Assembly (NCBI GenBank): GCA_016934985.1
Contig: JAFGRU010000030.1
Coordinates: 1 to 54,498 of the forward strand
DNA from: Deltaproteobacteria bacterium
GTDB lineage: Bacteria > Desulfobacterota > Desulfuromonadia > Desulfuromonadales > JAAYDE01
DNA length: 54,498 bases
Direction: 5' to 3'
The notes below the pieces were generated by a model that saw only the letters and a program-made list of their open reading frames with translations, did no database searches and was not told the origin of the DNA. The position numbers were made by a program, and so were the translations under genes. Positions within the stretch are counted from its first letter, which is position 1. Every line of letters begins with the position of its first letter. Positions 14,388-51,616 of this stretch are shown here, in pieces.

Positions 14388-16229
14388 CTATTTGGCCGGT
14401 GGGGAAAGGTTTTTTTTTGTTTTTCCAGATGTGGACTCGAGACCTGTTATCTGCAGCTGCACACTTTTTTGTCCGCGAAAATAATTCGCGTTCAGACGGT
14501 AAACCAGGGTCAGGGAACTACCTGGGGCCACATCCACAGAAGCGGCAGCGGACTCTTGGGCATTGAACCAAATAGCTGGAACCCTGCAGCCATCTTTTAT
14601 GAGCCCCAGCCGCAGATGCTTTCCTCCACCGACGGTCTGGCAGGAGGCAACCTCGAAATCTCCTTTCAGCATGGGCGAGGGAAAATCCTTGCCCCAGGGA
14701 TCGAGAGTGTTGAGAATATCCAAAGTTTCAAGGGTTAGCAGCTCGGCTGGCCAGTCCCCATCCACCCAAAGGGCAGGACGCAGGGGAGCAGTCCCCAATT
14801 GAGCCACAACTGCTGCCTCGAACGCCTCTTCAAAACGGGGAAAATCCTCAATGGCGACGGTCGCTCCGGCCGCCCCTTCGTGCCCCCCGAAACCACACAA
14901 AAGACCGGGATAGCGATCAGCCACCCATTGCAGGGCCTCGCGGACATGAAAGCCCGGGACCCCTCGGAAACTGCCTGTGGCCAATGGCCGAGCGTTTCCC
15001 GGGACAGGGTTTTCATCAACCCCTCTTGCGCCCCGCCCTTTGGGAGCAAACAAGGCAGCGGGCTTGCCGAAAGCCTCAGCCAGACGGCTGGCAGTGATGC
15101 CGTGCACGCCACTGTGGCCGTCGTCGAAATAAAGCACCAGGGACTGACCGCTCATCCTGATCGCCTGCTGGAAAGCCTGCTCACGCAACTCCCGCTCGAT
15201 GGACTGGCGCATGCGGTTTTCCCCTTTTAAAAAGTCCCACTGTTTTTCAGCTTCCAGCCGGTCGCCGGCCAGGAGAAAGCGTAATCCCGCTTCAGGCCAG
15301 TCCAGGCGCCCGCAAGCCGCCACCGGTGGCGCAAGGCGAAACGCAACAGTTTCGGCCGTGACCGGCCCCTCCACATCGGCACAGAAAACCTGCCAGGCAG
15401 CTCGTTTTTTTTCGTTGAGAAGCGCCAGGCCATATTTGACCAGGGCTCGATTGGTCGGACTCCGGTCAGGCCGCAAAGCCACGCAATCGGCTACCGTAGC
15501 CACGGCCACCAGGTCGACCAGCCCGGCAAGACTGGGAATGTCTTTTCTAATTCCCGTTTCAACAAGGCGGCTTCGAATCTTGGCCATGAGCAGAAAAGCA
15601 ACGGCTGCCCCGCAGATATTGGGATCGTAGTCAGCATCGGCACGGGTCGGATTAATAACCGCATAGGCTGAGGCCGGTGGCCCCTCTTTGGGCAGGGCAT
15701 GGTGATCGGTAACGATGACATCGCGCCCGGCTGCGGCAAGGCGGGCAATGCGCTCCTCGTCGCTGCTTCCCTTGTCAGCAGTAATGACCAGGGTGGCATC
15801 GGTAGCGAGAATCCTCTCCAGGACTGCCTCGGTCAGGCCATAGCCCTCGTTCAGGCGGTGACTCGTTACCACGCCAAGCAAATTCCCCGCGACTCCGAAA
15901 TATTCGGTGAAAGCCTGCCAAAGAACCGCCGCCGAGGCTGTGCCGTCGAGATCGTGGTCGCAGGTGAAGATAATCTCCTCACCATCGGCAATGGCCCGCA
16001 CACACCGTTCAACAGCTTTGTCTAAACCGGGGATCCTGGCTGGGTCCGGGATGGCGGATAACGCCGGCCTCAGAATATCCTCCCAGCCAACCGGCTCCTC
16101 GAGGCGCCGGGCGAGAAGATCCGCAAGCCAGTCCGGTGTCCCTTCCTTTAGAAGAGACGCATGGACCTTTTCATTGATAGGGCGAACTTGAATTATGGGA
16201 GATGGCAAAGGGATGGTTTCAACAAGCAT
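14388..16229 (-). CDS. recJ: RecJ, single-stranded-DNA-specific 5'-3' exonuclease
   Basis: About 613 residues from the ATG at 16229, with AAAGGA about 13 bases upstream; an in-frame TTG at 16253 is the alternative. The DHH phosphoesterase motifs are present: DHDLDGTASAA, ITADKGSSD and the DHH triad in VTDHHALP. The DHHA1 domain has GGHEGAAGATV, and a C-terminal OB-like domain ends in a basic tail (KTKKNLSPPAK). The enzyme trims 5' single strands in recombination and mismatch or base-excision repair. Length fits the family. It stands alone between the pilus locus and a TetR gene, with its own terminator. Confidence 0.9.
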   Translation of the reverse strand: MLVETIPLPSPIIQVRPINEKVHASLLKEGTPDWLADLLARRLEEPVGWEDILRPALSAIPDPARIPGLDKAVERCVRAIADGEEIIFTCDHDLDGTASAAVLWQAFTEYFGVAGNLLGVVTSHRLNEGYGLTEAVLERILATDATLVITADKGSSDEERIARLAAAGRDVIVTDHHALPKEGPPASAYAVINPTRADADYDPNICGAAVAFLLMAKIRSRLVETGIRKDIPSLAGLVDLVAVATVADCVALRPDRSPTNRALVKYGLALLNEKKRAAWQVFCADVEGPVTAETVAFRLAPPVAACGRLDWPEAGLRFLLAGDRLEAEKQWDFLKGENRMRQSIERELREQAFQQAIRMSGQSLVLYFDDGHSGVHGITASRLAEAFGKPAALFAPKGRGARGVDENPVPGNARPLATGSFRGVPGFHVREALQWVADRYPGLLCGFGGHEGAAGATVAIEDFPRFEEAFEAAVVAQLGTAPLRPALWVDGDWPAELLTLETLDILNTLDPWGKDFPSPMLKGDFEVASCQTVGGGKHLRLGLIKDGCRVPAIWFNAQESAAASVDVAPGSSLTLVYRLNANYFRGQKSVQLQITGLESTSGKTKKNLSPPAK

Positions 16230-16405
16230 TTTAAGTTCAGCGTCCTTTCCCAAATCAACGACCGGATTGATTTTAAAAAATTATCTGTGAAGGTAGCACG
16301 ATCAGATTGGAAACAAAAGAAGCTCCCATGCATATTTTTTTGAATAATGCCTGCATAAAAAGGACAAAGCAAAAAGTTTCAGTATCTGGGAAAAACAAAT
16401 TTTTA

Positions 16406-16422
16406 ATGAGCAAACACTCAGT
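16406..16422 (+). promoter_or_regulatory. Second, weaker TetR operator-like site
   Basis: ATGAGCAAACACTCAGT shares the CACTCAGT half-site with the better palindrome at 16499-16516, but its left half is imperfect. It lies upstream of the tetR promoter. Confidence 0.35.
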
Positions 16423-16466
16423 AAAAAACCTTAAAAAATTTTATTTTTTGCCAAAAAAAAGTATTC

Positions 16467-16494
16467 TTGACATTTCTGAAGAAAGATATATAAA
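16467..16494 (+). promoter_or_regulatory. Sigma-70-type promoter of the TetR gene
   Basis: TTGACA at 16467-16472 and TATAAA at 16489-16494 are separated by 16 bases. The expected start near 16501 falls inside the palindromic operator. Confidence 0.75.
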
Positions 16495-16498
16495 TTTT

Positions 16499-16516
16499 AC
16501 TAAGTGAACACTCAGT
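16499..16516 (+). promoter_or_regulatory. Palindromic operator, probably for the TetR protein
   Basis: ACTAAGTGAACACTCAGT is a two-fold repeat (ACTaAGTG-AA-CACTcAGT) with a single mismatch between arms. It covers the predicted transcription start of tetR, the usual place for an autoregulatory TetR site. A matching half-site, ACTGAGT, occurs at 17110-17116 between tetR and the transporter operon. Confidence 0.65.
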
Positions 16517-16537
16517 CACAAACCCCGGGATTTTTCT

Positions 16538-17107
16538 ATGGCACAAAAAACTGATACACGCTCCTCCATTCTCCAGGCAACCCTGGAGTTGATTGCTGAA
16601 AAAGGATTTCATGGATCACCTACGTCCATGATTGCTGACCGGGCAGGGATAAGCGTCGGCACTATATACTGCCATTTCAAAACTAAGGACGAATTGATCC
16701 ACGCCTTGCACGAAGAGCTTGAGGGAAAGCGCAGAACCGTCATTCTTAAAGGCTACTCTGAAGATCTTCCTTTCGGAGAACGTTATTTTCATCTTTGTCG
16801 CAATACCTATCACTACCTGATGGAAAATCCTCTGGAATTTCGCTTTATGGAGCAATATTCCTATTCTCCTTATGGCGTGTGTAATTTACGGCAGAAATTG
16901 GATAGTTATGTGGAACCTTTCCATGCCCTTTTCAAGCTGGGGATAGAACAACAAATTATTAAGAAACTTCCCTTGATGCTGCTGTTCGACCTGACCTTCG
17001 GGCCCATGATTAATGCCATTATGGACCATAATTTAGGGTTATTGACTCTTGAGGAGGCTTTGATAGAAGAAGCCATAGGCGCAACATGGGATGCGGTAAG
17101 AAGGTAA
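16538..17107 (+). CDS. TetR/AcrR family transcriptional regulator
   Basis: 189 residues. The N-terminal TetR domain is typical: ILQATLELIAEKGFHGS, then the helix-turn-helix MIADRAGISVGTIYCHFKTK. The C-terminal ligand domain (YFHLCRNTYHYLMENPLEFR) resembles the general AcrR/FadR-like group and does not by itself name a ligand. It lies directly upstream of the transporter and oxalurate-type genes in the same direction, and a palindrome covers its own promoter. I infer autoregulation and probably control of the downstream operon. The inducer could be oxalurate or a related ureide; this is a guess from context. Confidence 0.85.
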   Translation: MAQKTDTRSSILQATLELIAEKGFHGSPTSMIADRAGISVGTIYCHFKTKDELIHALHEELEGKRRTVILKGYSEDLPFGERYFHLCRNTYHYLMENPLEFRFMEQYSYSPYGVCNLRQKLDSYVEPFHALFKLGIEQQIIKKLPLMLLFDLTFGPMINAIMDHNLGLLTLEEALIEEAIGATWDAVRR

Positions 17108-17229
17108 AAAGACTGAGTTACTACTATACACTTTCGAAATTTTTTCAATAAAGCATGGAGCGCATCACACTCAAATTTTCAGCCTGTCATTTCCAAAAAC
17201 AAGGCGGTTTCTAACAAAAGGAGATCAAA

Positions 17230-18258
17230 ATGAACGAGATTAAAAAAACACGGGAACATCGTTCCGTCCTGAGAAGGTTCACAGTATTGGCGATGGTTTC
17301 AGCTTTTATTTTTGGTCTTACGACCATGTCCATGGCTATTGAACTGAAATTCCATCATGACTTGCCGGAGGACAGCGCCCAGCACCTGGCAGCCGAAAAA
17401 TTCAAAGCGGCCGTGGAAAGCCGCACCAATGGAGAAATCCAGGTCAAGATCTTTCCCAACAACGCATTGGGAGACGATGTCGAGGCTACCCAACAGATGC
17501 AATTCGGCGCCCTGCAGGGAGCGATTATTCCCACCGCAAAGCTGAGCAATTTTGTGCCGGCGCTGCAATTGGTCGACCTGCCCTTTCTGTTTCCCTCACC
17601 GCAGGTTGCACACCAGGTTCTGGACAGTGAAGTAGGCGACAAGCTTCTGGCAACCCTGGACAAAGTCGGCCTCAAAGGGGTCACGTTCTGGGAAAGCGGT
17701 TTCAAGCAGTTCACCTGCAACCATCCCATCCAGGAGCCGGCAGATTTCAAAGGCTACAAAGTCAGGGTAATGCAAAGCCCGATCATCATGGAACAGTTCA
17801 AAGCCCTCGGGGGCAACCCGGTGCCGATCGCTTTCGGGGAGACCTACAACGCCCTTCAGCAAAACGTCGTCTCATGCCAGGAGAACCCCCTGGTTTCGAT
17901 CACCAAGATGAAATTTTACGAAGTCCAAAAGAACCTGATTATCAGTAACCATGCCTACCTCGGGTACGCTTTCGTTTTCAGCAAAGTCTGGTTCGATGGG
18001 CTGAAGCCTGGACAACAGAAAATTCTTGTTGATGCGGCGCGCGAGATGACGAATTTCGAACGCGAGGAGACCGCCCGGCGCGAGGAAGGCTACGTCAAGA
18101 CGATTACCGAGAGCGGAACCAAAGTCAGCAAGCTCACTCCTGAGCAAATTGCAAAATTCCAGGAAGCGACTCTTTCCGTTCATAAAAAGTTTGCCAAACA
18201 GATCGGCCAGGACCTGATGGACGCTTTTTATCAGGAGATCAAAAAGGCCAGCAAGTAA
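17230..18258 (+). CDS. TRAP transporter solute-binding protein (DctP family)
   Basis: 342 residues with a cleavable signal peptide (FTVLAMVSAFIFGLTTMSMA) and a mature start near IELKFHHDLPEDSAQH. DctP hallmarks are FPNNALGDD, the region around YNALQQNVVSCQENPL, and the long C-terminal helices. The conserved carboxylate-binding Arg is expected in YKVRVMQSP. AAAGGAG precedes the ATG. It binds an organic anion in the periplasm and delivers it to the DctQ/DctM membrane proteins encoded next. From the downstream enzymes I infer oxalurate or a similar ureido acid as the substrate, but sequence alone cannot show this. Confidence 0.9.
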   Translation: MNEIKKTREHRSVLRRFTVLAMVSAFIFGLTTMSMAIELKFHHDLPEDSAQHLAAEKFKAAVESRTNGEIQVKIFPNNALGDDVEATQQMQFGALQGAIIPTAKLSNFVPALQLVDLPFLFPSPQVAHQVLDSEVGDKLLATLDKVGLKGVTFWESGFKQFTCNHPIQEPADFKGYKVRVMQSPIIMEQFKALGGNPVPIAFGETYNALQQNVVSCQENPLVSITKMKFYEVQKNLIISNHAYLGYAFVFSKVWFDGLKPGQQKILVDAAREMTNFEREETARREEGYVKTITESGTKVSKLTPEQIAKFQEATLSVHKKFAKQIGQDLMDAFYQEIKKASK

Positions 18259-18274
18259 CATTTTGGAATTAGCG

Positions 18275-18303
18275 GGCGGCAGCACCGCAAGGAGGCTGCC
18301 GCC
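18275..18303 (+). promoter_or_regulatory. GC-rich hairpin between dctP and dctQ
   Basis: GGCGGCAGC and GCTGCCGCC form a perfect 9-base-pair stem with an 11-base loop. No T run follows. Such hairpins after binding-protein genes usually protect the upstream mRNA and raise the amount of binding protein over the membrane subunits. Confidence 0.6.
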
Positions 18304-18353
18304 TGTTATCAGAGCACTCTCGATCTAATAGCAACAATCGACATGGGGGAATA

Positions 18354-18854
18354 ATGTCAAGTCTGGACAGAATCCTTTCTCACGCGGAAGAATTTTTACT
18401 GGGAATTCTTTTGGCCTCGGCGTCTCTGGTTCTTTTTGCCAACGTCGTCGCCCGCTACGTCTTCAACTGGGGATTCCCCTGGGCAGAGGAATTGGTTCGT
18501 TACGAAATTGTCTGGATGGTTTTTCTGGGAGGGAGTGCCGCTGCACGCCAGGGGCTCCACATCGGGGTCGATATTGTGGTCAAATTCGCCCCGCTTCCTT
18601 TGCGCAAAACCACGGAAGCATTGATCAATCTGATTTCTCTGGTCTTTTGTCTCCTCGTTCTCTTTTACGGCGCCAAGCTGATTATCCAGACCCGTATGTT
18701 CGGACAGGTCAGCCCCGCTCTTCAAGTCCCCATGTGGCTGGTTCAATTGGCCATACCCGTCGGTGGAGGGTTGATGGCGCTGCGGTTCGCCCAGCAGTTA
18801 TGGCACGTTTTCAGGGGTGAGAAGATGGAAGCTCATCCCGAAAGTTTAGGGTAA
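18354..18854 (+). CDS. TRAP transporter small permease (DctQ family)
   Basis: 166 residues with four hydrophobic helices. The first two flank the DctQ pattern VFANVVARYVFNWGFPWAEE (written here as its 20 residues from the family core, with Leu before Phe), followed by LVRYEIVWMVFLGGSAAARQ. The length is normal. GGGGGA precedes the ATG, and the gene ends six bases before dctM. It joins the large permease in the inner membrane and is needed for sodium-driven uptake. Confidence 0.88.
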   Translation: MSSLDRILSHAEEFLLGILLASASLVLFANVVARYVFNWGFPWAEELVRYEIVWMVFLGGSAAARQGLHIGVDIVVKFAPLPLRKTTEALINLISLVFCLLVLFYGAKLIIQTRMFGQVSPALQVPMWLVQLAIPVGGGLMALRFAQQLWHVFRGEKMEAHPESLG

Positions 18855-18860
18855 AAACAT

Positions 18861-20144
18861 ATGATAACAGCATTTTTTTTCCTTCTTGCCATTTTCCTCG
18901 TTGTCGGGGTGCCGATTTTTATCGCCCTTGCAGGGTCAGTCATGGGAGCGATGCTTCTGGGAGGAAGCCTCCCCCCGGCCATCATCATAGAGCGGCTGTT
19001 TGCAGGTCTCGATAAATTTGCCCTGATGGCGATCCCGTTTTTCATCCTGACCGGCAACCTCATGAATGTCGGAGGACTCTCCCGCCGAATAGTCAATCTC
19101 GCCAACCTTCTGGTCGGCCGCTTCAGGGGGGGGATGGGAATGACGGCCGTCTCCTCAAGCATGTTCTTCAGCGCCATCTCGGGGTCCGCCCCCGCGACCG
19201 TTGTTGCCGTCGGTTCCCTGCTGTACCCGGCACTCAAGAAAAACGGTTACAACAAACCGTTTTCCATCGGGGTCATCATCGCCTCCGGCTCCATCGGTAT
19301 TATCATTCCTCCGAGTATCGTCATGATTGTCTACGCGGCTGTCACCGGCGTTTCCGTAGGCGCCCTTTTCATGGCCGGGGTAGGCGCCGGTTTGCTTTAC
19401 GGCTTATGCTTCCTCCCCTATTGTTATTACATTGCCCGCCGGGACAAGGTCGAGCGCATGCCTCCGCCCACCAGAGACCAGCTTTGGGTAGGACTCAAGG
19501 ATTCCTCCTGGGGCCTGGGGGTTCCGATTGTCGTCCTGGGCGGAATTTACATGGGCGTTTTTACCCCCACCGAGGCCGCCGCAGCTTCAGTTGTTTATTC
19601 CCTGTTCGTATCGGGATTCATCTACCGTGAAAAAAGCTGGGGACAACTCTTTGATTCCATCAAATCCGCCGCCATTACCACTGCCCAGGTTATGATCATC
19701 CTTTCGGCAGCTTCGGTACTGTCCTGGTTCCTCACCAGCCAGGGCCTGGCGCTAACGATTGCCGATTCGGTGCTGTCCCTGAGTTCCAATCCGTATCATG
19801 TCTTCTTCCTCATCAACATTACGGTTCTGATTGTCGGGATGTTTCTGGATGCCGCTTCCATCATGGTCATTCTTGCGCCCCTGTTTTACAAAATCGGTAT
19901 GCAGATCGGCATCAACCCCATCCATCTCGGGGCCGTCTTGACGGTAAACGGCGCCATCGGCATGTTTACTCCGCCGTTCGGGTTGAATCTGTTCGTGGCC
20001 AGTTCCCTCGGGGATGTGGACTATCTGCAGGCCGTGCGCGGCTCCGCCCCTTTCATCGTGCTGGCGTTGCTTGCCCTGGCTCTGTTGACCTACCTGCCGG
20101 CCATCAGCATGTGGCTGCCGCGCATGGTTTACCCAGGGGTGTGA
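18861..20144 (+). CDS. TRAP transporter large permease (DctM family)
   Basis: 427 residues with about twelve membrane helices, which is the full family length. Family segments include AIPFFILTGNLMNVGGLSRR, SAISGSAPATVVAVGSLLYP, SIGIIIPPSIVMIVYA and NGAIGMFTPPFGLNLFVASS. No clear ribosome site is seen. It starts six bases after dctQ and is probably translated by coupling. It is the transporting subunit of the importer, and it is followed closely by the carbamoyltransferase-type genes. Confidence 0.92.
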   Translation: MITAFFFLLAIFLVVGVPIFIALAGSVMGAMLLGGSLPPAIIIERLFAGLDKFALMAIPFFILTGNLMNVGGLSRRIVNLANLLVGRFRGGMGMTAVSSSMFFSAISGSAPATVVAVGSLLYPALKKNGYNKPFSIGVIIASGSIGIIIPPSIVMIVYAAVTGVSVGALFMAGVGAGLLYGLCFLPYCYYIARRDKVERMPPPTRDQLWVGLKDSSWGLGVPIVVLGGIYMGVFTPTEAAAASVVYSLFVSGFIYREKSWGQLFDSIKSAAITTAQVMIILSAASVLSWFLTSQGLALTIADSVLSLSSNPYHVFFLINITVLIVGMFLDAASIMVILAPLFYKIGMQIGINPIHLGAVLTVNGAIGMFTPPFGLNLFVASSLGDVDYLQAVRGSAPFIVLALLALALLTYLPAISMWLPRMVYPGV

Positions 20145-20183
20145 TAAGGAAATCATGAAAGTTGTTCTCGAAAGGAAAAACTG

Positions 20184-21620
20184 ATGAATAATAATCATCC
20201 ATCGAAACTGTTAACCGAACCACTGCATGTGGTCAACATCGGGCTCAAGGCATTCGCCGACAATCTTGAAGCACAACAGGTGCCGGTTGTCCAGGTCGAT
20301 TGGGTACCCCCCGCAGGAGGAAATACGGAAATAGCCTCCCTTCTGGCAAAACTGGAATCAGGGCCGATAAAAGAAAAAATCAACCGAGCAAACAAAGAGG
20401 CATTAGCGCGCATGCTTTCCGCCGATCCGGTTCTGATCGATGTAGTGCCGGCAAATGAGGCAATTCCGACACTTGGTGATCGCATGATCCTCCATGCCGG
20501 GCCTCCCGTCGGGTGGGAGCGCATGTGCGGGCCTATGAAAGGAGCTGTTGCCGGTATCGCCGTTTTTGAGGGCTGGGCTGAAGATCTGATTACTGCCGAG
20601 CGGATGGCTGCGGCCGGTGAATTTGCTTTTCATCCCAATCACCACTTCGGGGCCGTTGGTCCCATGACTGGGATGACGACACGCAGTCAGCCGGTTCTGG
20701 TCATTGAAAATAAAAAATTCGGCAATCGCGCCTACTGTACCATTAACGAAGGTCTTGGCAAGGTCATGCGCTTTGGCGGCAACGATGAAGAAGTCCTCGA
20801 CCGACTGCGCTGGATCCGTGACGAGTTCGGGCCCGCTTTGGGGAGGGCCATCCGCAGCACCGGTGGGATTCCCCTTAAAAACCTCTTAGCGAGGGGGCTT
20901 TCCATGGGCGATGAAATGCATCAGCGCAACGTAGGATGTTCCGGGCTGATACTGCGCCAATTAGCACCGGCCCTGGCTAAAACGGCTGATGATCTGAGTG
21001 CTCTGGAACGCAGTCTGGCCTTCATGGGCGGCAATGATCAGTTTTTCCTCAATATCGCCATGGCCATGGGCAAAGCCATCATGGATCCGGTTGCAGGGAT
21101 AGAAAATTCTTCCGTCGTAACCGCCATGTGCCGCAATGGAACGGACTTCGGTATCCGGGTCAGCGCCACCGGCGACGAATGGTTCACCGCACCCGTGGAA
21201 ATGCCCAACGGACTGTATTTTCCGGGTTTTTCGGAAAAAGATGCCAACCCGGATATGGGGGATTCGGCAATTGTCGAAACCATCGGTTTGGGCGGATTTG
21301 CAATGGGCGCCTCTCCTGCAGTAGCGGGATTTGTCGGCGCCGGGGTGGCCGCAGACGCCGCTAATTTCACACGGGCCATGACCGAAATCACCGTCGGAGA
21401 AAATCCCGAGTGGACCATCCCGGCCATGGATTATCTGGGGGTTCCCACCGGTATTGATATCCGTCTTGTTTTGGAAACCGGGCTGGCTCCGACCATCAAT
21501 ACCGGCATCGCCCATAAAAAACCGGGTGTCGGCCAGGTGGGCGCAGGTGTCGTCCGCGCCCCGCAGGCTTGCTTTGAAAAGGTTCTTGTTGCTTTTGCCA
21601 GAACGGTAGGTGTCGGATGA
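20184..21620 (+). CDS. DUF1116 protein, AllG/YlbE-like subunit of oxamate (oxalurate) carbamoyltransferase
   Basis: 478 residues of the DUF1116 family, which includes Escherichia coli YlbE (AllG). Characteristic stretches are VVQVDWVPPAGG near the N-terminus, PVGWERMCGPMKGAV, FHPNHHFGAVGPMTGMTTRS, GNDQFFLNIAMAMGKAIMDP and TGIAHKKPGVGQVGAGVVRA. The first of these is the motif shared by all DUF1116 proteins. AAAGGAA precedes the ATG. The stop overlaps the FdrA-like start in ATGA form. In E. coli, FdrA, AllG and AllH together form the oxamate carbamoyltransferase that converts oxalurate and phosphate to oxamate and carbamoyl phosphate. The same three families are adjacent here, so I infer the same reaction. 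Confidence 0.82.
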   Translation: MNNNHPSKLLTEPLHVVNIGLKAFADNLEAQQVPVVQVDWVPPAGGNTEIASLLAKLESGPIKEKINRANKEALARMLSADPVLIDVVPANEAIPTLGDRMILHAGPPVGWERMCGPMKGAVAGIAVFEGWAEDLITAERMAAAGEFAFHPNHHFGAVGPMTGMTTRSQPVLVIENKKFGNRAYCTINEGLGKVMRFGGNDEEVLDRLRWIRDEFGPALGRAIRSTGGIPLKNLLARGLSMGDEMHQRNVGCSGLILRQLAPALAKTADDLSALERSLAFMGGNDQFFLNIAMAMGKAIMDPVAGIENSSVVTAMCRNGTDFGIRVSATGDEWFTAPVEMPNGLYFPGFSEKDANPDMGDSAIVETIGLGGFAMGASPAVAGFVGAGVAADAANFTRAMTEITVGENPEWTIPAMDYLGVPTGIDIRLVLETGLAPTINTGIAHKKPGVGQVGAGVVRAPQACFEKVLVAFARTVGVG

Positions 21621-23119
21621 AAAAAGTCATTGTCAATCAAGTCAAAACTGGATTTTATTTGGACTCGGTGGCCCTGATGCGATTTTCCCGTACCATCGCA
21701 GGCATGGACGATGTGGAAGAGGCCGCTCTCATGATGGGGACCCCTTCCAACAAAAAAATCATGACAGAAGCCGGCATTCTCGGTCCGGAAGGGGAAAAGG
21801 CATCGGGTGGAGATCTTATTATCGGCATTCGGGCAGCACATCAGGCGGCGGCTGACAAGGCTCTGGCAGAATCCATAAATCTTCTCGAACAATCCGCTGT
21901 TACCCGTAAAAAAGGGGAAACATGGCGGCCTCGGACACTTGCCGCCGCCCTTAAATCGGATTCGACTATCAACCTGGCGCTGATTTCAGTGGCTGGTGAG
22001 TTTGCAGCAGCAGAAGCCCGGAAAGCGCTTCACCAGGAATTGAATGTCATGATTTTCAGTGACAACGTCCCGGTGGGGGAAGAAGTCGCCCTGAAAAATG
22101 AAGCCAGGGAACTGGGTCTGCTGGTGATGGGACCCGATTGCGGGACAGCTATTATCAATGGGGTGCCCCTGGCCTTTGCGAACCAAGTAAAACGTGGAGG
22201 CGTTGGCATTATCGGCGCGTCCGGAACCGGAATCCAGGAAGTCTCCTGCCTGATCAGCCAGGGAGGCGGAGGTATTTCCCAGGCCATCGGCGTCGGAGGA
22301 CGCGACCTCAAGAAGGAAGTTGGCGGCATTTCCACCCTTATGGCGCTTGAAGTCCTGGAAGCCGACCCGGCAACCCGCCATATCGTTTTAATCTCCAAAC
22401 CGCCGGCAGCGTCCGTCGCGGAAAGCATCCTGGCCCGAATCAAGGAAAGCCGGAAAAATTTCACCGTCTGTTTCCTTGGGGCATCCGGTCTGGAACTACC
22501 CAACAATGCGGTTTTTTCTTCGACCCTGAAAGCCGCTGCGGAATCCGCCCTCGGGGGAACTTCGATCTCGACCGGTTTTCTGCCGGACCAAGCCGCCGCT
22601 TCACCCCCGAAAGGGAAAAACTCCGTGTTGGGACTTTTTTCAGGCGGGACCCTTTGTTCTGAAACTCAATTCATTTTTCGCGAAGCCGGCGAATCCATAA
22701 ATTCCAATGTTCCGATACCGGGCGTGTCCAAGCTCGAAGGAATCCCCAAGGGACATTGTTTTATCGATTTCGGCGATGACGAATACACCCAAGGGCGACC
22801 CCATCCGATGATCGATCCCACGATTCGCGATGAGGCCCTCGTGAAAGCATTGAGCAACCCGGATGTCGGCGTTATTCTGATTGACGTAGTGATCGGATAT
22901 GGAGCTCATAACGATCCGGCCGGACACCTGGCATCAGTCCTGCCCCCCCGCCGGGCCGACAACCCCCTGGTCATTGCTTCCGTCACAGGGACCGACCTGG
23001 ATATCCAGAATCGCGCCTCTCAGGTCAGGACGCTGGAAGAAGCCGGGATCCTGGTTGCCCCTTCGAATGCCGATGCGGCGCTTCTGGCCCTAGCCTGTCT
23101 CAAGCGTAAAGGAGGATAA
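21617..23119 (+). CDS. fdrA: FdrA-like acyl-CoA-synthetase-fold protein, subunit of oxamate (oxalurate) carbamoyltransferase
   Basis: 500 residues. The N-terminal FdrA-specific region (MKKVIVNQVKTGFYLDSVAL, then VEEAALMMGTPSNKKIM) precedes a CoA-binding-like Rossmann domain (ELGLLVMGPDCGTAIINGVP; GVGIIGASGTGIQEVSCLIS) and a ligase-like domain (SVLGLFSGGTLCSETQFIF; DPTIRDEALVKAL). The conserved phospho-His of succinyl-CoA synthetases is not seen, as expected for FdrA. It is somewhat shorter than E. coli FdrA (about 555 residues). It overlaps the DUF1116 gene by four bases and precedes carbamate kinase by three, so the set is one translation unit. It probably provides the catalytic scaffold for oxalurate phosphorolysis. 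Confidence 0.82.
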   Translation: MKKVIVNQVKTGFYLDSVALMRFSRTIAGMDDVEEAALMMGTPSNKKIMTEAGILGPEGEKASGGDLIIGIRAAHQAAADKALAESINLLEQSAVTRKKGETWRPRTLAAALKSDSTINLALISVAGEFAAAEARKALHQELNVMIFSDNVPVGEEVALKNEARELGLLVMGPDCGTAIINGVPLAFANQVKRGGVGIIGASGTGIQEVSCLISQGGGGISQAIGVGGRDLKKEVGGISTLMALEVLEADPATRHIVLISKPPAASVAESILARIKESRKNFTVCFLGASGLELPNNAVFSSTLKAAAESALGGTSISTGFLPDQAAASPPKGKNSVLGLFSGGTLCSETQFIFREAGESINSNVPIPGVSKLEGIPKGHCFIDFGDDEYTQGRPHPMIDPTIRDEALVKALSNPDVGVILIDVVIGYGAHNDPAGHLASVLPPRRADNPLVIASVTGTDLDIQNRASQVRTLEEAGILVAPSNADAALLALACLKRKGG

Positions 23120-23122
23120 GCC

Positions 23123-24100
23123 ATGTCCCCATTATCTGCAAAAATGGAGATACCGGACCGGGTACTCGTTGCCATCGGAGGAAATGCCACCCACCCTGAA
23201 AACATCTCCGGCACCTCCGACGAGCAGAAAATAATTGCGAAAAATTCAGCCAAGGCGCTCCTCCCGCTCATGCTGCTGGATAACGAACTTGTGATCACCC
23301 ATGGAAACGGTCCGGTCGTAGGCAAAATCATGATGCGCCAGGCCCTGACCAGGGAGCACATTCCACCGATGTCCCTCGACATCTGTGTGGCTCACAGCCA
23401 GGGGGGAATTGCCTATCTTCTCATGCAAGCCATGGAAAATGCCTTGCGTGAAACTGGAAGCCCCAGGCATGTGGCCTGCCTGTTGACCCAGGTTGAAGTC
23501 GACCCTGACGATCCCGCTTTCCAGAACCCGACCAAACCGATAGGACCGTTTTTCAGTAAAACGATGGCTGAAAAGATTGGCAAGGAACTGGGTTGGCTTA
23601 TGAAGGAGGACGCGGGTCGCGGTTGGCGTCATATGGTGCCGTCGCCAAAACCCCGTCATATCTGTGACATTTCCCTGGTGCAGGCTCTTGCCCAGCGAGG
23701 AACGGTAGTCATTGCCGGCGGTGGCGGCGGTATCCCCATTGTCCGGGGCCCGAAAGGGGTAAGGCACGGGGTCGAAGCAGTTATCGACAAGGATCTCACC
23801 TCAGCTCACATGGCCAATGTTCTGGGGATCGAGGTTCTGATGATTCTTACCGCGGTTCCCAAGGTGGCGATTCATTTCGGGAAACCGGAACAACAGGAAC
23901 TGGACCGCGTGACATTGTCCGAACTGCGCGCCTACCGCGACGAGGGTCATTTCCCTGCAGGGAGCATGGGCCCGAAAATCGATGCGGCCATCCGTTTCCT
24001 CGAAGGTGGGGGGAAGCGGGCCATCATCGGCCGTTTGGAAGAGGCGATGGATGCCCTGTCAGGTGTTACCGGCACCCAGATTTACAGCGATGAACCCTGA
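23123..24100 (+). CDS. Carbamate kinase
   Basis: 325 residues of the amino-acid-kinase fold. Motifs include VAIGGNATHP at the nucleotide site, THGNGPVVGKIMMRQ, SQGGIAYLLMQAMEN, VIAGGGGGIPIVRG, the VIDKDLTSAHMANVLG lysine segment and FPAGSMGPKIDAAIRFLEGG near the C-terminus. AAAGGAGG lies ahead of the ATG. The enzyme converts carbamoyl phosphate and ADP to ATP, CO2 and ammonia. Next to the FdrA/AllG/AllH genes it matches the role of E. coli AllK (YbcF): harvesting ATP from oxalurate cleavage. The next gene starts inside its last codons. Confidence 0.93.
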   Translation: MSPLSAKMEIPDRVLVAIGGNATHPENISGTSDEQKIIAKNSAKALLPLMLLDNELVITHGNGPVVGKIMMRQALTREHIPPMSLDICVAHSQGGIAYLLMQAMENALRETGSPRHVACLLTQVEVDPDDPAFQNPTKPIGPFFSKTMAEKIGKELGWLMKEDAGRGWRHMVPSPKPRHICDISLVQALAQRGTVVIAGGGGGIPIVRGPKGVRHGVEAVIDKDLTSAHMANVLGIEVLMILTAVPKVAIHFGKPEQQELDRVTLSELRAYRDEGHFPAGSMGPKIDAAIRFLEGGGKRAIIGRLEEAMDALSGVTGTQIYSDEP

Positions 24101-25037
24101 CAATCCATATCCAATTCGCTTTCAGGCCCTCAAAATGGGGGCAGCAGCAGCCCGCGTTCTCACACGATCCGGGCAAGGGTATGTGAATGCGGTTTTCAAG
24201 CGCTGCTTTTATTGCGAAATTAACGATAATTTTATCTGTATTGGCTCTCCCACTTTGGGCATGTGCCCATTGAATGTCACCACCTCCATGCCGGAGGGTG
24301 ACATTCGTGTTTTTCCAGGACTTGTTACAGGCATGGCGGTGAGAGTTTGCGGAGATTATGTGAGGATAGGGGGCGAGCGCTTTCTCCTTAAAACGGATGG
24401 AGGGGGAGTGTGGCTTCCTCCTCCCCCTTCCGCAACAGATCCGCAAAAGATTAAATCCGGCCTGAACGCATTGGAAAAGGTCGCCGCTCCTCGGCTTCCG
24501 AAGGATGGCTTGGGTCGGTTTATCGATACCTTTCCTTTCCCGACTTTGAGAACAGAACCCGTTTTAACGCAAGCTGCCTGGCCATTGAAGCGTTTGCAGG
24601 GCTGGCTTCGGCAATCCCTGGCCGATCCGCAAAATATCCAGGATCCGGATATTTTCTCCTGGAAGAGGCTGTTGGGACTAGGGCCGGGTTTGACTCCGTC
24701 AGGTGATGATCTGGTTGGCGGAGTCATGCTTGGACTTCACAGTTTGGGGTGTTTCCCCATTATAAAAACGTTGTCTTCTGCAATCACTCAGGTTCTAGCT
24801 GAAAGCACCAATCCGATCAGCGCCGCCCATTTGCGGTGTGCAATGGAAGGAACAGGAAGTAAAACTGCCCATTCGGCCATCAACGCCATATTATCCGGTA
24901 ACCGGAAAGAAATATCTCAAATCCCCGTGGATATTGAAAAAATTGGTCATACATCGGGTTGGGACATGCTGGCCGGTATCGTGATTGTTTTCCGCCTCTG
25001 GCTGGAATCTGCGGAGGCCTGCCAATCGGCAGCCTGA
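24090..25037 (+). CDS. DUF2877 protein, AllH/YlbF-like subunit of oxamate (oxalurate) carbamoyltransferase
   Basis: About 315 residues from the ATG at 24090, which overlaps the carbamate kinase stop; the frame is open further upstream, but only inside that gene. The family hallmark LGPGLTPSGDDLVGGVMLGL is present at about residues 190-210. It is followed by STNPISAAHLRCAMEGTGS and a C-terminal helix (GWDMLAGIVIVFRLWLES). DUF2877 proteins include E. coli YlbF (AllH), the third partner of the FdrA-AllG complex. Here the kinase gene sits between the FdrA-like gene and this one. The N-terminal third has low complexity and two Cys-containing turns (RCFYCEIND). Confidence 0.8.
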   Translation: MNPDNPYPIRFQALKMGAAAARVLTRSGQGYVNAVFKRCFYCEINDNFICIGSPTLGMCPLNVTTSMPEGDIRVFPGLVTGMAVRVCGDYVRIGGERFLLKTDGGGVWLPPPPSATDPQKIKSGLNALEKVAAPRLPKDGLGRFIDTFPFPTLRTEPVLTQAAWPLKRLQGWLRQSLADPQNIQDPDIFSWKRLLGLGPGLTPSGDDLVGGVMLGLHSLGCFPIIKTLSSAITQVLAESTNPISAAHLRCAMEGTGSKTAHSAINAILSGNRKEISQIPVDIEKIGHTSGWDMLAGIVIVFRLWLESAEACQSAA

Positions 25038-25088
25038 CACAACTTGGCTATAAACCAGGAACTTTGAAAAATGAAAGGAGTCTCAGAC

Positions 25089-26681
25089 ATGCTGCACACA
25101 GTCCAGTCTTTTCGGGGCATGGTAACGGCATCCCATCATCTGGCGGCAAGGGCCGGGTTGCGGGTTCTGGAGGATGGTGGCAACGCCATCGAGGCCATGA
25201 TCGCCGCAGCCAGCACGATTGCCGTCGTCTATCCGCACATGAATGCGCTGGGCGGGGACAACTTCTGGCTGATTCACACGCCCGGAGGAGAGGTGACCGG
25301 GATCGACGCCTGCGGCGCGGCTGCCGGCAGGGCCGACATCGCTTTTTACAAAAAGCAAGGGTTCGATGCCATCCCCAGCCGTGGGCCGTTGGCCGCACTG
25401 ACTGTCGCTGGAGCAGTTTCAGGCTGGGAGGAGGCTTATCGCTTCAGCAAAGAAAAATGGGGCGGTCGCCTGCCTCTTTCCCGTATCCTTGAAGATGCCA
25501 CGTTTTTGGCACGGGATGGATTCGCCGTGACCCGGACCCAGGCAGCCAACACGAGCGGGAAACTGGAGGAATTGAAAAACGTGCCAGGCTTCGCTTCAAC
25601 CTTTCTCCCCGAAGGTCAGCCCCCTGCCGTCGGATACCGTTTCCGCCAACCGGCCCTGGCCGAAACTTTAAAAGTGCTGGCCGAAAAAGGTCTCGACACC
25701 TTTTATCGGGGTGACTTGGCACGTGCCATTGCCGCCGAACTGGAGGCCGCCGGCTCCCCCATCACTCTCGCCGACCTCGAAAGCCATCGGGCACTGCGCC
25801 TCAAGCCGCTGACCGTGGAAGTGGCCGGACACAGAATTTTCAACATGCCGCCGCCTACCCAGGGGCTGGCTTCCCTGATTCTGCTGGGCGTGTTCGATCG
25901 GCTCGGAGTCAAAGAGGCAGAAGGTTTCGATTTTGTTCATGGTCTGGTGGAATCCACCAAAAGAGCTTTCCGAATCCGCGACCGTTATGTCACCGATCCT
26001 CACTACATGAAAGCTGACCCAAAGTCTTTCCTGACTTCTGAAAAACTGGATGCACTGGCCGCCGAAATTTCCATGAAAACAGCCTTACCCTGGCCCGAAG
26101 CTGCCGCGCCCGGCGATACCGTCTGGCTCGGGGCTGCGGACAGCGAAGGTCGTGTTGTCAGCTTTATCCAAAGCATTTATTGGGAATTCGGTTCGGGAGT
26201 GGCACTGCCCGAAACCGGCATCACCTGGCAGAACCGCGGGGTCAGTTTCAGCCTCGACCCCTCTCATCACAACTGCCTGAAGCCCCATCGTCGCCCCTTC
26301 CACACCATCCAACCGGCGCTGGGGCATCTCAATGACGGTCGGGTCATGGCTTACGGTACCATGGGTGGCGAGGGCCAGCCCCAGACCCAGGCCATGGTCT
26401 TTGCCCGGCACGTGCTTTTCGGCCAGGAACTGCAACAGGCGGTTTCTGCACCACGCTGGCTGCTCGGAAGAACCTGGGGCGCCAGTGCAACAAATCTTCG
26501 CATCGAAAACCGGTTTGCGGCAGATGTTTTAGCAGCGTTGAAAAATGCCGGCCATGATGTCGATGTTATCAGCGACTTCGACGAGGTCATGGGACATGCA
26601 GGCGCCGTAGTTTTCCATCCTGACGGTTTGATTGAAGGCGCCGCCGACCCGCGCGGGAATGGACTTCCGGCAGGATTTTAA
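25089..26681 (+). CDS. HpxW-like Ntn-hydrolase, probable oxamate amidohydrolase (gamma-glutamyltransferase family)
   Basis: 530 residues from the ATG at 25089, with AAAGGAG 8 bases upstream; an ATG at 25071 lies ahead of that site. The fold is that of gamma-glutamyltranspeptidase: GMVTASHHLAARAGLRVLED, then GGNAIEAMIAAAST. The self-cleavage and catalytic Thr is predicted at about residue 344, in GDTVWLGAADSEG. In true transpeptidases this motif is TTHxxVxD; the single Thr before a hydrophobic residue matches HpxW of Klebsiella, which hydrolyses oxamate to oxalate and ammonia. There is no signal peptide, so the enzyme is probably cytoplasmic, unlike exported transpeptidases. It follows the DUF2877 gene and would use the oxamate made by the preceding enzymes. 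Confidence 0.8.
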   Translation: MLHTVQSFRGMVTASHHLAARAGLRVLEDGGNAIEAMIAAASTIAVVYPHMNALGGDNFWLIHTPGGEVTGIDACGAAAGRADIAFYKKQGFDAIPSRGPLAALTVAGAVSGWEEAYRFSKEKWGGRLPLSRILEDATFLARDGFAVTRTQAANTSGKLEELKNVPGFASTFLPEGQPPAVGYRFRQPALAETLKVLAEKGLDTFYRGDLARAIAAELEAAGSPITLADLESHRALRLKPLTVEVAGHRIFNMPPPTQGLASLILLGVFDRLGVKEAEGFDFVHGLVESTKRAFRIRDRYVTDPHYMKADPKSFLTSEKLDALAAEISMKTALPWPEAAAPGDTVWLGAADSEGRVVSFIQSIYWEFGSGVALPETGITWQNRGVSFSLDPSHHNCLKPHRRPFHTIQPALGHLNDGRVMAYGTMGGEGQPQTQAMVFARHVLFGQELQQAVSAPRWLLGRTWGASATNLRIENRFAADVLAALKNAGHDVDVISDFDEVMGHAGAVVFHPDGLIEGAADPRGNGLPAGF

Positions 26682-26881: not shown

Positions 26882-27820
26882 TCAGGTACTCTTTGTTGCC
26901 GGCTTCCCTCCTGCTGCCTTACCCTTTTTCTGGCTGTACTCCTCCCAGAAGATAAGCAGCGGGCTGGCCACGAAAATGGAGGAATAGGTACCGATCAGAA
27001 TCCCGACCAGCAGGGCAAAGGCAAAGTTGTTGATCACCCCGCCGCCGAAAATGAACAGGGCCAGGACCACGACCAGGGTTGTGAAGGACGTCATCAAAGT
27101 CCTGGAAAGGGTTTCGTTGATACTGCGATTGATGATGAAGGGGAACGTCTCCTTGTGGTATTTCCCCATGTTTTCCCGGATGCGGTCATAAACGATAATA
27201 GTGTCGTTGAGGGAATAGCCGATTATGGCTAGAAAAGCCGCAATAACCGGCAGGTCTATCTCCCGCCCGAAAAGAGAGAAAACCCCGAGGGTGACCAAGA
27301 CATCGTGGATCAGGGCAACGATAGCACCAACCGCGAAACGGAATTCGAAACGCCAGGTGACATAGATGAGAATCCCGATCATGGCATAACAGATGGCCAG
27401 CAGGCCTTTCTGGCGCAGGTCCTTACCGACCTGGGGGCCGACCATTTCGGCACGGCGCATTTCTACCTTGCCGCTGCCGTAGTGATTTTCCAAGGTTTCC
27501 AGGATTTGCTGGCCGAGCCCTTCGATTTCTGTTTCCGTGGGGGTTCGCACCAGAAATTCGTTCGGCTCGTCACCAAACTGCTGGACCGTAACGGTCCCCA
27601 TTTTCAGGTCTTTCAGGGCCCCCTTGATGTCGGCCGCCTTGGTCGATTCCGTGAATTTCAACTGCACCAGGGTTCCGCCGGCAAAATCGATGCCGTAATT
27701 CGGCCCCCCTTTGAGGACCAGAGAAACGAGCCCGATCAGGATCAGAATCGCGGAGAACACCACGGCCAGTTTACGCTTGCCGATGAAGTCGATATTGATA
27801 TCTGTTTTTATTAGCTGCAT
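26882..27820 (-). CDS. secF: SecF, protein translocase subunit
   Basis: 312 residues with six membrane helices and the SecD/F signature GGPNYGIDFAGGTLVQLKF near the N-terminus. Later come AIIGYSLNDTIIVYDRIREN and RSINETLSRTLMTSFTTLVV. AGGAGA precedes the ATG. It starts ten bases after the secD stop. With SecD it uses the proton gradient to help preproteins leave the SecYEG channel on the periplasmic side. Confidence 0.97.
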   Translation of the reverse strand: MQLIKTDINIDFIGKRKLAVVFSAILILIGLVSLVLKGGPNYGIDFAGGTLVQLKFTESTKAADIKGALKDLKMGTVTVQQFGDEPNEFLVRTPTETEIEGLGQQILETLENHYGSGKVEMRRAEMVGPQVGKDLRQKGLLAICYAMIGILIYVTWRFEFRFAVGAIVALIHDVLVTLGVFSLFGREIDLPVIAAFLAIIGYSLNDTIIVYDRIRENMGKYHKETFPFIINRSINETLSRTLMTSFTTLVVVLALFIFGGGVINNFAFALLVGILIGTYSSIFVASPLLIFWEEYSQKKGKAAGGKPATKST

Positions 27821-43452: not shown

Positions 43453-43761
43453 TCAAACCTTTTCCGCCAATTGTGCCGCCAAACCTTCATAGTCCCCCAA
43501 ATGCGCGCGCATCAGACTCTTCCATAGTCTGCCGTGATTGGGCACGAAAAAGTGCAGCAATTCATGGACGATGACGTAATCCCAAAGCTCGGGTTCGAGA
43601 TCGAGAAGTTCCGCGTTGAAATTCAGATGGCCCTTGGTTGACCAGGAGGCCCACTTGTTGCTCATGGGTCGGATACCAAGCCAGGCGACCTCGACCTCAA
43701 GCTTGTCTGCCCAGTAGCGTACCCGGGCCTTGAATTCATTCTTTGGGGACTGGACATCCAT
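43453..43761 (-). CDS. YgjP-like (DUF45) metallopeptidase, short form
   Basis: 102 residues from the ATG at 43761, with AAGGTGGG upstream; the start overlaps the end of hsdR. It has the zinc-binding HELLH in DYVIVHELLHFFVPNHGRLW and the preceding SNKWASWSTKGHLNFNAELL, both typical of the YgjP family. Full YgjP proteins are longer, so this is the catalytic C-terminal part only. Short versions occur at the end of type I restriction operons. Its substrate is unknown. Confidence 0.85.
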   Translation of the reverse strand: MDVQSPKNEFKARVRYWADKLEVEVAWLGIRPMSNKWASWSTKGHLNFNAELLDLEPELWDYVIVHELLHFFVPNHGRLWKSLMRAHLGDYEGLAAQLAEKV

Positions 43762-43765
43762 AAAA

Positions 43766-46687: not shown

Positions 46688-47127
46688 CAATCCACCTTCT
46701 TTTGGTTCACGCGGAGACGCGAAGATGCGGAGGGATCAAGATTGTTGACGATACGATGAAGCCCTTCCTTGAGGGTGGGGGCACCGAAGTTTATCAGCAG
46801 ACCTACGGGGAGTTTCATCAAGCGGAGATAGGTCAGCAACTGCTTGGAATGAACAGGAGCGACTTTTTCCACGGATTTCAGTTCAACCAAAACTTGATTT
46901 TCAACCAAAAGATCAATCCGAAATCCATCGTCAAACCGAATGCCGTCATACTCGAAACAGACCGGCTTTTGGCGTTCGACCACCAAACCACGCCTGATTA
47001 AAATTTCTGCAAGCAATCTCTCGTAGACACTTTCCAGCAAGCCCGGGCCCAGATCCATGTGCAGTCTGACCGAAGCATCGACAATTTCTCCGGTGATATC
47101 ATCTAGCACTCTCATGTTTTTTGTCAT
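46687..47127 (-). CDS. GxxExxY family protein
   Basis: 146 residues. The family motif lies in GPGLLESVYERLLAEILIRR, and a nuclease-like segment with D-x-L and the E-x-K Lys follows in FRIDLLVENQVLVELKSVE. The last residues (PSASSRLRVNQKK) are encoded by the dispersed palindromic repeat that also occurs nearby. Two ATG codons (47127 and 47115) compete as start. It sits between the SEC-C gene and hsdR. The function of the family is not established. Confidence 0.88.
   Translation of the reverse strand: MTKNMRVLDDITGEIVDASVRLHMDLGPGLLESVYERLLAEILIRRGLVVERQKPVCFEYDGIRFDDGFRIDLLVENQVLVELKSVEKVAPVHSKQLLTYLRLMKLPVGLLINFGAPTLKEGLHRIVNNLDPSASSRLRVNQKKVD
46706..46750. repeat. Dispersed palindromic repeat, copy 1 (inside the GxxExxY gene)
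   Basis: TTCACGCGGAGACGCGAAG, followed by ATGCGGAGGGATCAAGATT, forms one arm of the element. It encodes the C-terminus of the GxxExxY protein. The same left end is found in copy 3. Confidence 0.7.
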
Positions 47128-47555: not shown

Positions 47556-47673
47556 TCACGCGGAGGGCCGGAGATGCAAAGGGATAAAGATTCCTCTCAT
47601 GGTTTTCTCCGCGTCTCCGCGTGATGCTCGACTTTCAGCATTTTGGGAACATATTCCGGTGCCACAAATTTTC
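47555..47673. repeat. Dispersed palindromic repeat, copy 3
   Basis: Left arm TTCACGCGGAGGGCCGGAG (related to copy 1) and right arm CTCCGCGTCTCCGCGTGA surround a 35-base centre. The shared tail ends at the stop codon of the SEC-C gene. Confidence 0.75.
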
Positions 47674-49189: not shown

Positions 49190-49217
49190 GGCGATCTTCC
49201 CATTGATTCCGGTTGGA

Positions 49218-50432: not shown

Positions 50433-50473
50433 ACCCCAATTTTCTCCAATATTTCCTTCACCGCCACATCCGC

Positions 50474-50480: not shown

Positions 50481-50484
50481 AATT

Positions 50485-51613: not shown

Positions 51614-51616
51614 TCA

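What the first reader, a model, noticed from the sequence alone, without database searches (positions are those of the whole stretch)
16406..26681. Compact operon for oxalurate breakdown with its own TRAP importer and TetR control
Seen: TetR gene, TRAP transporter (DctP/Q/M), DUF1116, FdrA-like, carbamate kinase, DUF2877 and an HpxW-like Ntn-hydrolase in one direction with overlaps or short gaps. Known: in E. coli FdrA, AllG (DUF1116) and AllH (DUF2877) form the oxamate (oxalurate) carbamoyltransferase with carbamate kinase downstream; HpxW of Klebsiella hydrolyses oxamate. Inference: the operon imports oxalurate, cleaves it to oxamate and carbamoyl phosphate, gains ATP, and finishes oxamate to oxalate and ammonia. 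No allantoin or allantoate enzyme is present, so the cell would use oxalurate directly. I do not know of a described TRAP-linked version with HpxW attached.
Basis: partly seen in the sequence, partly recalled or inferred. Interest (0 to 1): 0.8.

Follow-up and report, generated by a model that had tools for sequence, protein, structure and literature searches.

The report
Operon for scavenging and burning oxalurate
A bacterium likely related to Desulfuromonas carries one compact gene cluster that would import oxalurate, a late product of purine breakdown, and likely split it for ATP and ammonia, with an added last enzyme predicted to finish off the oxamate that E. coli leaves as waste; in many other proteobacteria the same core genes sit beside an enzyme that likely makes oxalurate.

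Summary
In detail: nine genes on one strand (16538-26681), TetR, DctP-DctQ-DctM, AllG, AllF (FdrA), carbamate kinase, AllH, HpxW-like Ntn hydrolase, with short gaps or overlaps. In 32 of 80 related loci the AllG set lies near a ureidoglycine-glyoxylate aminotransferase-like gene (HpxJ-like, an oxalurate-forming family), in 23 directly upstream; 39 of 80 carry the HpxW-like gene. The last enzyme is 56.0% identical to HpxW (PDB 5hft), 28.6% to E. coli gamma-glutamyltransferase, and lacks the latter's substrate-binding residues. Searches of the host genome (90% complete) for HpxJ, allantoate amidohydrolase and allantoinase found none, so import is the likely entry. TRAP-plus-HpxW versions also occur in Mesorhizobium and Aurantimonas loci, so the layout recurs. 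AllG groups with mostly alphaproteobacterial rows, and the cluster lies between recJ and secF, neighbours in one same-family genome: likely lateral gain. Not shown: any activity, the DctP ligand, the fate of oxalate. Related sets with other partners mean that other substrates exist in the family. Best filed as a new variant joining the E. coli All and Klebsiella Hpx routes.

The parts
16409..16424 (+). first copy of operator-like repeat AGNNAACACTCAGTNA
   Evidence: 2 exact matches in the window, 0.03 expected; role as TetR site inferred
16467..16496 (+). promoter-like site TTGACA-18-TAAATT upstream of TetR
   Evidence: consensus match only (7 found in the region, 6.3 expected by chance)
16503..16518 (+). 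second copy of the operator-like repeat, just downstream of the promoter-like site
16538..17107 (+). TetR-family regulator (189 aa)
   Evidence: TetR_N 2.1e-16, TetR_HI_0893_C 8.3e-19
17230..18258 (+). TRAP solute-binding protein DctP (342 aa)
18354..18854 (+). TRAP small permease DctQ
   Evidence: 1.4e-36
18861..20144 (+). TRAP large permease DctM
   Evidence: 1.4e-118
20184..21620 (+). AllG (DUF1116) subunit of predicted oxamate carbamoyltransferase; residues 5-57 match the C-terminal tail of FdrA
   Evidence: AllG 2.1e-89; tail match 3.2e-10; PDB 3clq 5.3e-122
21617..23119 (+). AllF (FdrA-like) subunit
   Evidence: PRK06091 496.8 bits (cut-off 433); PDB 3dmy 2.3e-89
23123..24100 (+). carbamate kinase (AllK role; NCBIfam subfamily PRK12352)
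   Evidence: PRK12352 345 bits (cut-off 266); arcC equivalog 347.9, just under its cut-off 358.25
24090..25037 (+). AllH (DUF2877) subunit, 315 aa
   Evidence: AllH 2.7e-21 (scanned from base 24081); start chosen
25071..26681 (+). HpxW-like Ntn hydrolase, predicted oxamate amidohydrolase; likely start 25089 (530 aa), predicted self-cleavage before Thr350 (536-aa numbering)
   Evidence: 56.0% identity (293 of 523) to PDB 5hft, titled 'Crystal structure of HpxW'

Best explanation
This is one predicted operon, likely laterally acquired by a bacterium probably related to Desulfuromonas, that would take up oxalurate through its TRAP transporter, likely phosphorolyse it with an AllF-AllG-AllH complex to oxamate and carbamoyl phosphate, would make ATP from the latter with its carbamate kinase, and is predicted to hydrolyse the oxamate to oxalate and ammonia with an HpxW-type enzyme. 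Shown by the calls: the genes, their order, their families, the closeness of the last enzyme to HpxW, the repeated linkage of the same core to an oxalurate-forming type of aminotransferase and to HpxW in other bacteria, and no hit for three upstream purine enzymes in the host genome. Inferred: transcription as one unit, all activities, the TRAP ligand, TetR control through the two repeats at 16409 and 16503, lateral gain, and the fate of the oxalate. Net balance if correct: oxalurate + ADP + Pi + H2O gives oxalate + 2 NH3 + CO2 + ATP.
For: Families and order. E. coli AllFGH is the purified oxamic transcarbamylase and allK its carbamate kinase (PMC11326118, abstract and discussion read). In 80 loci encoding AllG relatives of 62-80% identity: AllF in 76, carbamate kinase 62, AllH 63, HpxW-like (50% identity or more) 39, HpxJ-like (55% or more to the L014 gene) 32, HpxK-like 18; of the 36 loci with 9 kb on both sides, HpxW-like in 28, HpxJ-like in 13. 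HpxJ-like lies within 400 bases upstream of AllG in 23 of 80. That aminotransferase (L014) matches ureidoglycine-glyoxylate aminotransferase 3nnk with 526 bits and PucG 3isl with 456, against 284 for the next entry, an alanine-glyoxylate aminotransferase; ureidoglycine aminotransferase leads to oxalurate (PMC5270733 passage). HpxW-like enzyme: 56.0% to 5hft, 36.4% to 2nlz, 31.9% to 2i3o, 28.6% to E. coli GGT; 90 aligned residues shared with 5hft alone against 18 with 2nlz alone and 22 with 2i3o alone; Thr nucleophile kept, residues at the GGT positions R114, D433, S462, S463 are C, V, H, T. HpxW releases oxalate and ammonium from oxamate (PMC5270733 passage). Own genome: best HpxJ hit 24% identity, 82.8 bits; no HpxK match; the allantoinase hit lies beside aspartate carbamoyltransferase- and carA-like genes and looks like dihydroorotase (read by eye).
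Against: Identities of AllF/AllG/AllH/carbamate kinase to E. coli All (41/51/31/38%) and to the uncharacterised Yah set (42/45/32/48%) do not decide between them. The AllG family keeps other company too: YahJ-like amidohydrolases in 18 of 80 loci, isochorismatase-type hydrolases in pathogenic E. coli (PMC12928451, PMC3349570 passages) and a 'cysteine hydrolase' in Peptoclostridium, so the family may serve more than one carbamoyl substrate. 27 of 80 loci show neither HpxW nor HpxJ, some of them cut by contig ends, but 8 of the 36 long-flanked loci lack HpxW and 23 of 36 lack HpxJ. NCBIfam has no model over cut-off for the HpxJ-like protein, and the HpxK-like protein, though over cut-off as allantoate amidohydrolase there, is nearer in the PDB to an N-carbamoyl-L-amino acid hydrolase. 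The TRAP version lacks HpxJ, so its substrate rests on analogy. One search had no positive control. No formyl-CoA transferase match and no oxalyl-CoA decarboxylase over cut-off in the host genome.
Confidence: 0.75

Rival explanations
1. The operon handles another N-carbamoyl acid: the AllFGH-like complex transfers a carbamoyl group from a relative of oxalurate, and the last enzyme cleaves the resulting amide, as may be the case for the uncharacterised YahEFGI set.
For: The carbamate kinase is closer to YahI than to AllK (48% against 38%), AllG carries the N-terminal tail domain as YahG does, and the wider family sits with YahJ-like or isochorismatase-type hydrolases.
Against: The nearest relatives in the AllG tree (12-row group, support 99/88) have HpxJ-like genes in 8 of the other 11 loci, and the last enzyme is HpxW-like at 56%; HpxJ and HpxW bracket oxalurate and oxamate.
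Confidence: 0.15
2. The TRAP transporter imports a precursor or a different acid (for example a dicarboxylate or another ureide), and oxalurate arises inside the cell.
Against: Queries for HpxJ, HpxK and allantoinase found no true match in the host genome, and in L032 and L050 the TRAP genes directly precede AllG where 23 other loci carry HpxJ-like genes. The genome is only 90.38% complete, and AllD and AllE were not searched.
Confidence: 0.2
3. The last gene is an ordinary gamma-glutamyltransferase unrelated to the pathway.
For: Pfam and NCBIfam name it only as gamma-glutamyltranspeptidase-like, and TIGR00066 scores it just under its cut-off (334.3 against 357.85).
Against: Residues at the positions of E. 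coli R114, D433, S462 and S463 are C, V, H and T; 39 of 80 AllG-family loci carry this enzyme.
Confidence: 0.05

Closest known systems
E. coli allFGHK operon (oxamic transcarbamylase and catabolic carbamate kinase; PMC11326118)
   Same: AllF, AllG, AllH and carbamate kinase together; predicted oxalurate phosphorolysis with ATP gain.
   Different: Order G-F-K-H here; FdrA's C-terminal tail sits at the N-terminus of AllG; no allantoin genes beside it; own TRAP importer; HpxW-like enzyme added, where oxamate is called a dead-end byproduct in E. coli (PMC12535856 passage).
Klebsiella Hpx urate pathway (HpxK, HpxJ, oxalurate amidohydrolase HpxY, HpxW; order recalled)
   Same: HpxW-type last step at 56% identity; in relatives also HpxK- and HpxJ-like genes.
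   Different: Oxalurate would be cleaved by phosphorolysis with ATP gain instead of plain hydrolysis; HpxJ and HpxK not found here.
allFGHK in comammox Nitrospira and ammonia-oxidising archaea (PMC12625717, passages)
   Same: allFGHK without upstream purine genes, proposed use of oxalurate made by others.
   Different: There linked to biuret or triuret genes and a nucleoside-type ABC transporter; the main text holds no word beginning with TRAP and names HpxW once, in a tree legend.
TRAP-AllG-HpxW loci of Mesorhizobium xinjiangense (L032) and uncultured Aurantimonas (L050)
   Same: HpxW, DctP, DctQ, DctM, AllG, AllF, carbamate kinase in a row, AllH in L050 (the L032 contig ends after the kinase).
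   Different: HpxW comes first there and last here; L050 has, by eye, another TetR-type gene on the opposite strand before HpxW.
E. coli yahEFGI (function unknown)
   Same: Same families, and the tail domain on the AllG-type subunit.
   Different: No TRAP or HpxW; YahJ amidohydrolase next to it.
Rubrobacter ureidoglycine carbamoyltransferase with carbamate kinase (PMC4016543, passages)
   Same: Works alike: a purine-ureide carbamoyltransferase feeding carbamate kinase.
   Different: A single-gene enzyme of the aspartate carbamoyltransferase family, acting on allantoate.

Membership tests
AllFGH oxamate carbamoyltransferase | AllF, AllG and AllH all encoded together | tested here: met
   AllG 2.1e-89, AllH 2.7e-21, FdrA model 496.8 bits over cut-off
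AllFGH oxamate carbamoyltransferase | linked catabolic carbamate kinase | tested here: met
   PRK12352 345 bits, cut-off 266; gene 3 bases after AllF
AllFGH oxamate carbamoyltransferase | closer to E. coli AllFGH than to the paralogous YahFGE set | tested here: inconclusive
   identities 41/51/31% against 42/45/32%; one search leaves both E. coli rows outside on long branches
AllFGH oxamate carbamoyltransferase | transfers carbamoyl between oxamate and phosphate | not testable with these tools
   needs purified protein
HpxW oxamate amidohydrolase | GGT-fold Ntn hydrolase with N-terminal Thr after self-cleavage | tested here: met
HpxW oxamate amidohydrolase | closest solved relative by sequence is HpxW | tested here: met
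   56.0% to 5hft against at most 36.4% to the other three compared
HpxW oxamate amidohydrolase | hydrolyses oxamate | not testable with these tools
   needs assay
gamma-glutamyltransferase (EC 2.3.2.2) | gamma-glutamyl-binding residues R114, D433, S462, S463 (E. coli numbering, recalled) | tested here: not met
   C, V, H, T at these columns (the neighbouring column of D433 holds S, so no Asp there either)
TRAP transporter | DctP, DctQ and DctM genes together | tested here: met
TRAP transporter | carboxylate-binding arginine of the binding protein (role recalled) | tested here: inconclusive
   R179 is invariant in 55 aligned sequences; that it is the canonical arginine is judged by motif and recall only
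TRAP transporter | binds oxalurate | not testable with these tools
   one search gives folds, no ligand
Complete Hpx or All allantoin pathway | allantoinase, allantoate amidohydrolase and HpxJ or AllD/AllE present | tested here: not met
   allantoinase, HpxK and HpxJ queries in a 90.38%-complete genome (without positive control); AllD and AllE not searched genome-wide

The most novel reading that the evidence does not exclude
Oxalurate is a traded metabolite: a TRAP transporter dedicated to oxalurate feeds a complete, ATP-yielding oxalurate-to-oxalate route in bacteria that make no oxalurate themselves, the importer having taken the place that the oxalurate-forming HpxK-HpxJ genes hold in proteobacterial relatives.
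Probability: 0.55. Interest if true: 0.65.

Novelty: new variant of a known kind. Interest (0 to 1): 0.5.

Why it matters
If true it names an importer family for oxalurate, closes the step that E. coli leaves open (oxamate as a dead-end byproduct), and joins two separately described purine routes (All and Hpx) into one that conserves ATP. It also makes testable the idea that late purine breakdown products pass between microbes, already proposed for nitrifiers on the strength of allFGHK without upstream genes (PMC12625717 passages). The HpxJ linkage gives a substrate argument for AllFGH outside enterobacteria that does not rest on 31-51% identity alone.

Tried and rejected
Sequence distance to the E. 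coli All or Yah sets did not decide the substrate; the AllG tree leaves those rows on long branches that the tool warns about. Reading the ligand from DctP: the model is good (pLDDT 93.3) but TRAP proteins of different ligands lie close in Z and the titles are cut before the ligand. Oxalate use: formyl-CoA transferase no match, oxalyl-CoA decarboxylase two matches below cut-off. DctP relatives on plasmids: none at 1e-70. Composition as a sign of transfer: GC of the operon 0.543 against 0.525 in the rest of the window, not telling. Mobile-element signs: no tRNA in the window, and the longest exact repeat shared by the two flanks is 10 bases. Considered and dropped: ordinary GGT (residues); allantoinase in the genome (the hit looks like dihydroorotase in a pyrimidine cluster).

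Ten literature searches, none showing a TRAP-linked AllFGH/HpxW operon: (listings; open-licence PMC only). Hicks and Ealick 2016 (HpxW) was not held and was not read; it is known here from a citing passage and the PDB title.

Full report
What is there. Nine + strand genes run from 16538 to 26681 between recJ (14388-16253, - strand) and the secF-like gene (26882-27820, - strand, named by its neighbours and length). Order: TetR, DctP, DctQ, DctM, AllG, AllF, carbamate kinase, AllH, HpxW-like. Gaps are 122, 95, 6, 39, -4, 3, -11 and 33 bases (51 if the last gene starts at 25089). Pfam places all nine over a cut-off. One transcript is likely but untested.

Upstream signals. Two exact copies of AGNNAACACTCAGTNA lie at 16409 and 16503, where 0.03 matches are expected in the window. 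The second follows a promoter-like TTGACA-18-TAAATT (such sites are no more frequent in the region than by chance). TetR control through them is inferred.

The carbamoyltransferase. E. coli AllF-AllG-AllH were purified as oxamic transcarbamylase, with allK as carbamate kinase (PMC11326118, abstract and discussion read). Here AllG matches PDB 3clq at 5.3e-122 and AllF matches FdrA 3dmy at 2.3e-89. The tail of the FdrA profile (positions 503-554) is found at the N-terminus of AllG, as in YahG: a small domain that ends AllF in E. coli and begins AllG here.

Identity alone does not settle the substrate: against E. coli All the values for F, G, H and kinase are 41, 51, 31 and 38%, against Yah 42, 45, 32 and 48%.

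Context does more. A scan of named species genomes with AllG gave 312 relatives, of which the best 80 were kept, mostly Alphaproteobacteria by title. Counted over all 80 (cut-offs: HpxW-like 50% identity, HpxJ-like 55% and HpxK-like 45% to the L014 genes, YahJ-like E 1e-8): AllF 76, carbamate kinase 62, AllH 63, HpxW-like 39, HpxJ-like 32, HpxK-like 18, YahJ-like 18, DctP 2. Of the 36 with at least 9 kb on either side, 28 carry HpxW-like and 13 HpxJ-like genes. 27 of 80 show neither HpxW nor HpxJ. Within 400 bases upstream of AllG stands HpxJ-like in 23, another allantoate-amidohydrolase-like gene in 6, AllH in 6, YahJ-like in 4, DctM in 2, HpxK-like in 2, nothing recognised in 34, contig end in 3.

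L014 shows the full row: HpxK-like, HpxJ-like, AllG, AllF, kinase, AllH, HpxW. Its HpxK-like protein is over NCBIfam's cut-off for one allantoate amidohydrolase model, though its best PDB match is an N-carbamoyl-L-amino acid hydrolase. Its HpxJ-like protein matches ureidoglycine-glyoxylate aminotransferase 3nnk with 526 bits and PucG with 456, the next with 284, while no NCBIfam model reaches its cut-off. Ureidoglycine aminotransferase leads to oxalurate, and HpxW releases oxalate and ammonium from oxamate (PMC5270733 passages). So in relatives with AllG up to 80% identical, the likely maker of oxalurate and the likely consumer of oxamate flank the complex predicted to turn one into the other.

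The importer. DctP is a good TRAP binding-protein model, R179 is invariant in 55 aligned sequences, the ligand is not told. TRAP genes directly before AllG, with HpxW upstream of them, occur in Mesorhizobium xinjiangense (L032; the contig ends after the kinase) and Aurantimonas (L050). In the protein searches, DctP and HpxW relatives share longest-contig lengths in three cases (56,683; 232,616; 12,549, the best 120 rows of each), which fits linkage but does not prove it.

Host. The tRNA-guanine transglycosylase of the window is nearest, among the listed proteins that bear names, to Geothermobacter, Geoalkalibacter and Desulfuromonas (70-76% identity); on this one protein the host is taken as related to Desulfuromonas. 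AllG is found in 6 of 395 genomes sampled from its phylum, the window's own included. In the AllG tree (40 rows, 37 of them hand-picked) the window falls in a 12-row group (99/88) whose other 11 rows are Pseudomonadota, nine alphaproteobacterial by title or family and two Granulosicoccaceae; 8 of the 11 have HpxJ-like genes in the locus, while the four other phylum rows lie elsewhere. In one same-family genome recJ (67% identity) lies about 120 bases from secF (L096); the two other same-family genomes show no recJ in the shorter stretches held. Of 23 best secF loci from other genomes 10 show recJ within 1.5 kb (32-67% identity), 13 none in the stretch held. The operon therefore likely entered between recJ and secF by lateral transfer; composition does not show it.

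Own genome (90.38% complete): HpxJ query, best 24%; HpxK query, nothing, without positive control; allantoinase query, one 30% hit that looks like dihydroorotase beside pyrimidine genes and one short one; formyl-CoA transferase, nothing; oxalyl-CoA decarboxylase, only below cut-off. Import is the likely source of substrate, and the fate of oxalate is unknown.

Against. The wider family also keeps other company: isochorismatase-type hydrolases in extraintestinal E. coli (PMC12928451, PMC3349570 passages), a 'cysteine hydrolase' with xanthine permeases in Peptoclostridium, and YahJ-like amidohydrolases in 18 of 80 loci. A second substrate is therefore likely somewhere in the family; the close relatives argue for oxalurate here. 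No activity has been measured.

Verdict. A recurrent combination of known parts that none of the ten literature searches listed under Tried and rejected showed as described: a new variant, moderately interesting, directly testable.

Noticed in passing
window 20196-20354 (AllG residues 5-57): A tail domain that ends FdrA/AllF in E. coli begins AllG here and in YahG: a small domain that has moved between two subunits of one complex.
   Followed up: partly
L010, L019, L022, L027, L031, L056, L087 and Bradyrhizobium/Afipia loci: YahJ-like (cytosine-deaminase-type) amidohydrolases accompany the AllG set in 18 of 80 loci, several with ABC transporter genes recognised by eye; a ring-opening step that yields oxalurate is a guess.
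   Followed up: no
L075, L078, L080, L083, L085, L089: Bradyrhizobium loci carry a second AllF (41-42%) and AllG (45%) pair just downstream of the first set.
   Followed up: no
L065, L067, L069, L070: Afipia loci carry a second, more distant HpxW-like gene (40-42%) after carbamate kinase.
   Followed up: no
plasmids collection: AllG relatives (under 60% identity) occur on 166 plasmid-collection records, 96 of them Escherichia and 131 typed conjugative (some records are of chromosome size); one Klebsiella plasmid carries an E. coli type allantoin region (L121).
   Followed up: partly
window 47672-53366: A DUF1186/SEC-C protein (47672-49189), a type I restriction specificity protein (49218-50558) and an HsdM-type N-6 DNA methylase (51759-53366) lie on the - strand.
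   Followed up: no
window 43730-46759: A 1009-aa open frame without any Pfam match at 1e-5, facing an antisense frame of 974 aa that was not scanned; not clear which, if either, is coding.
   Followed up: no
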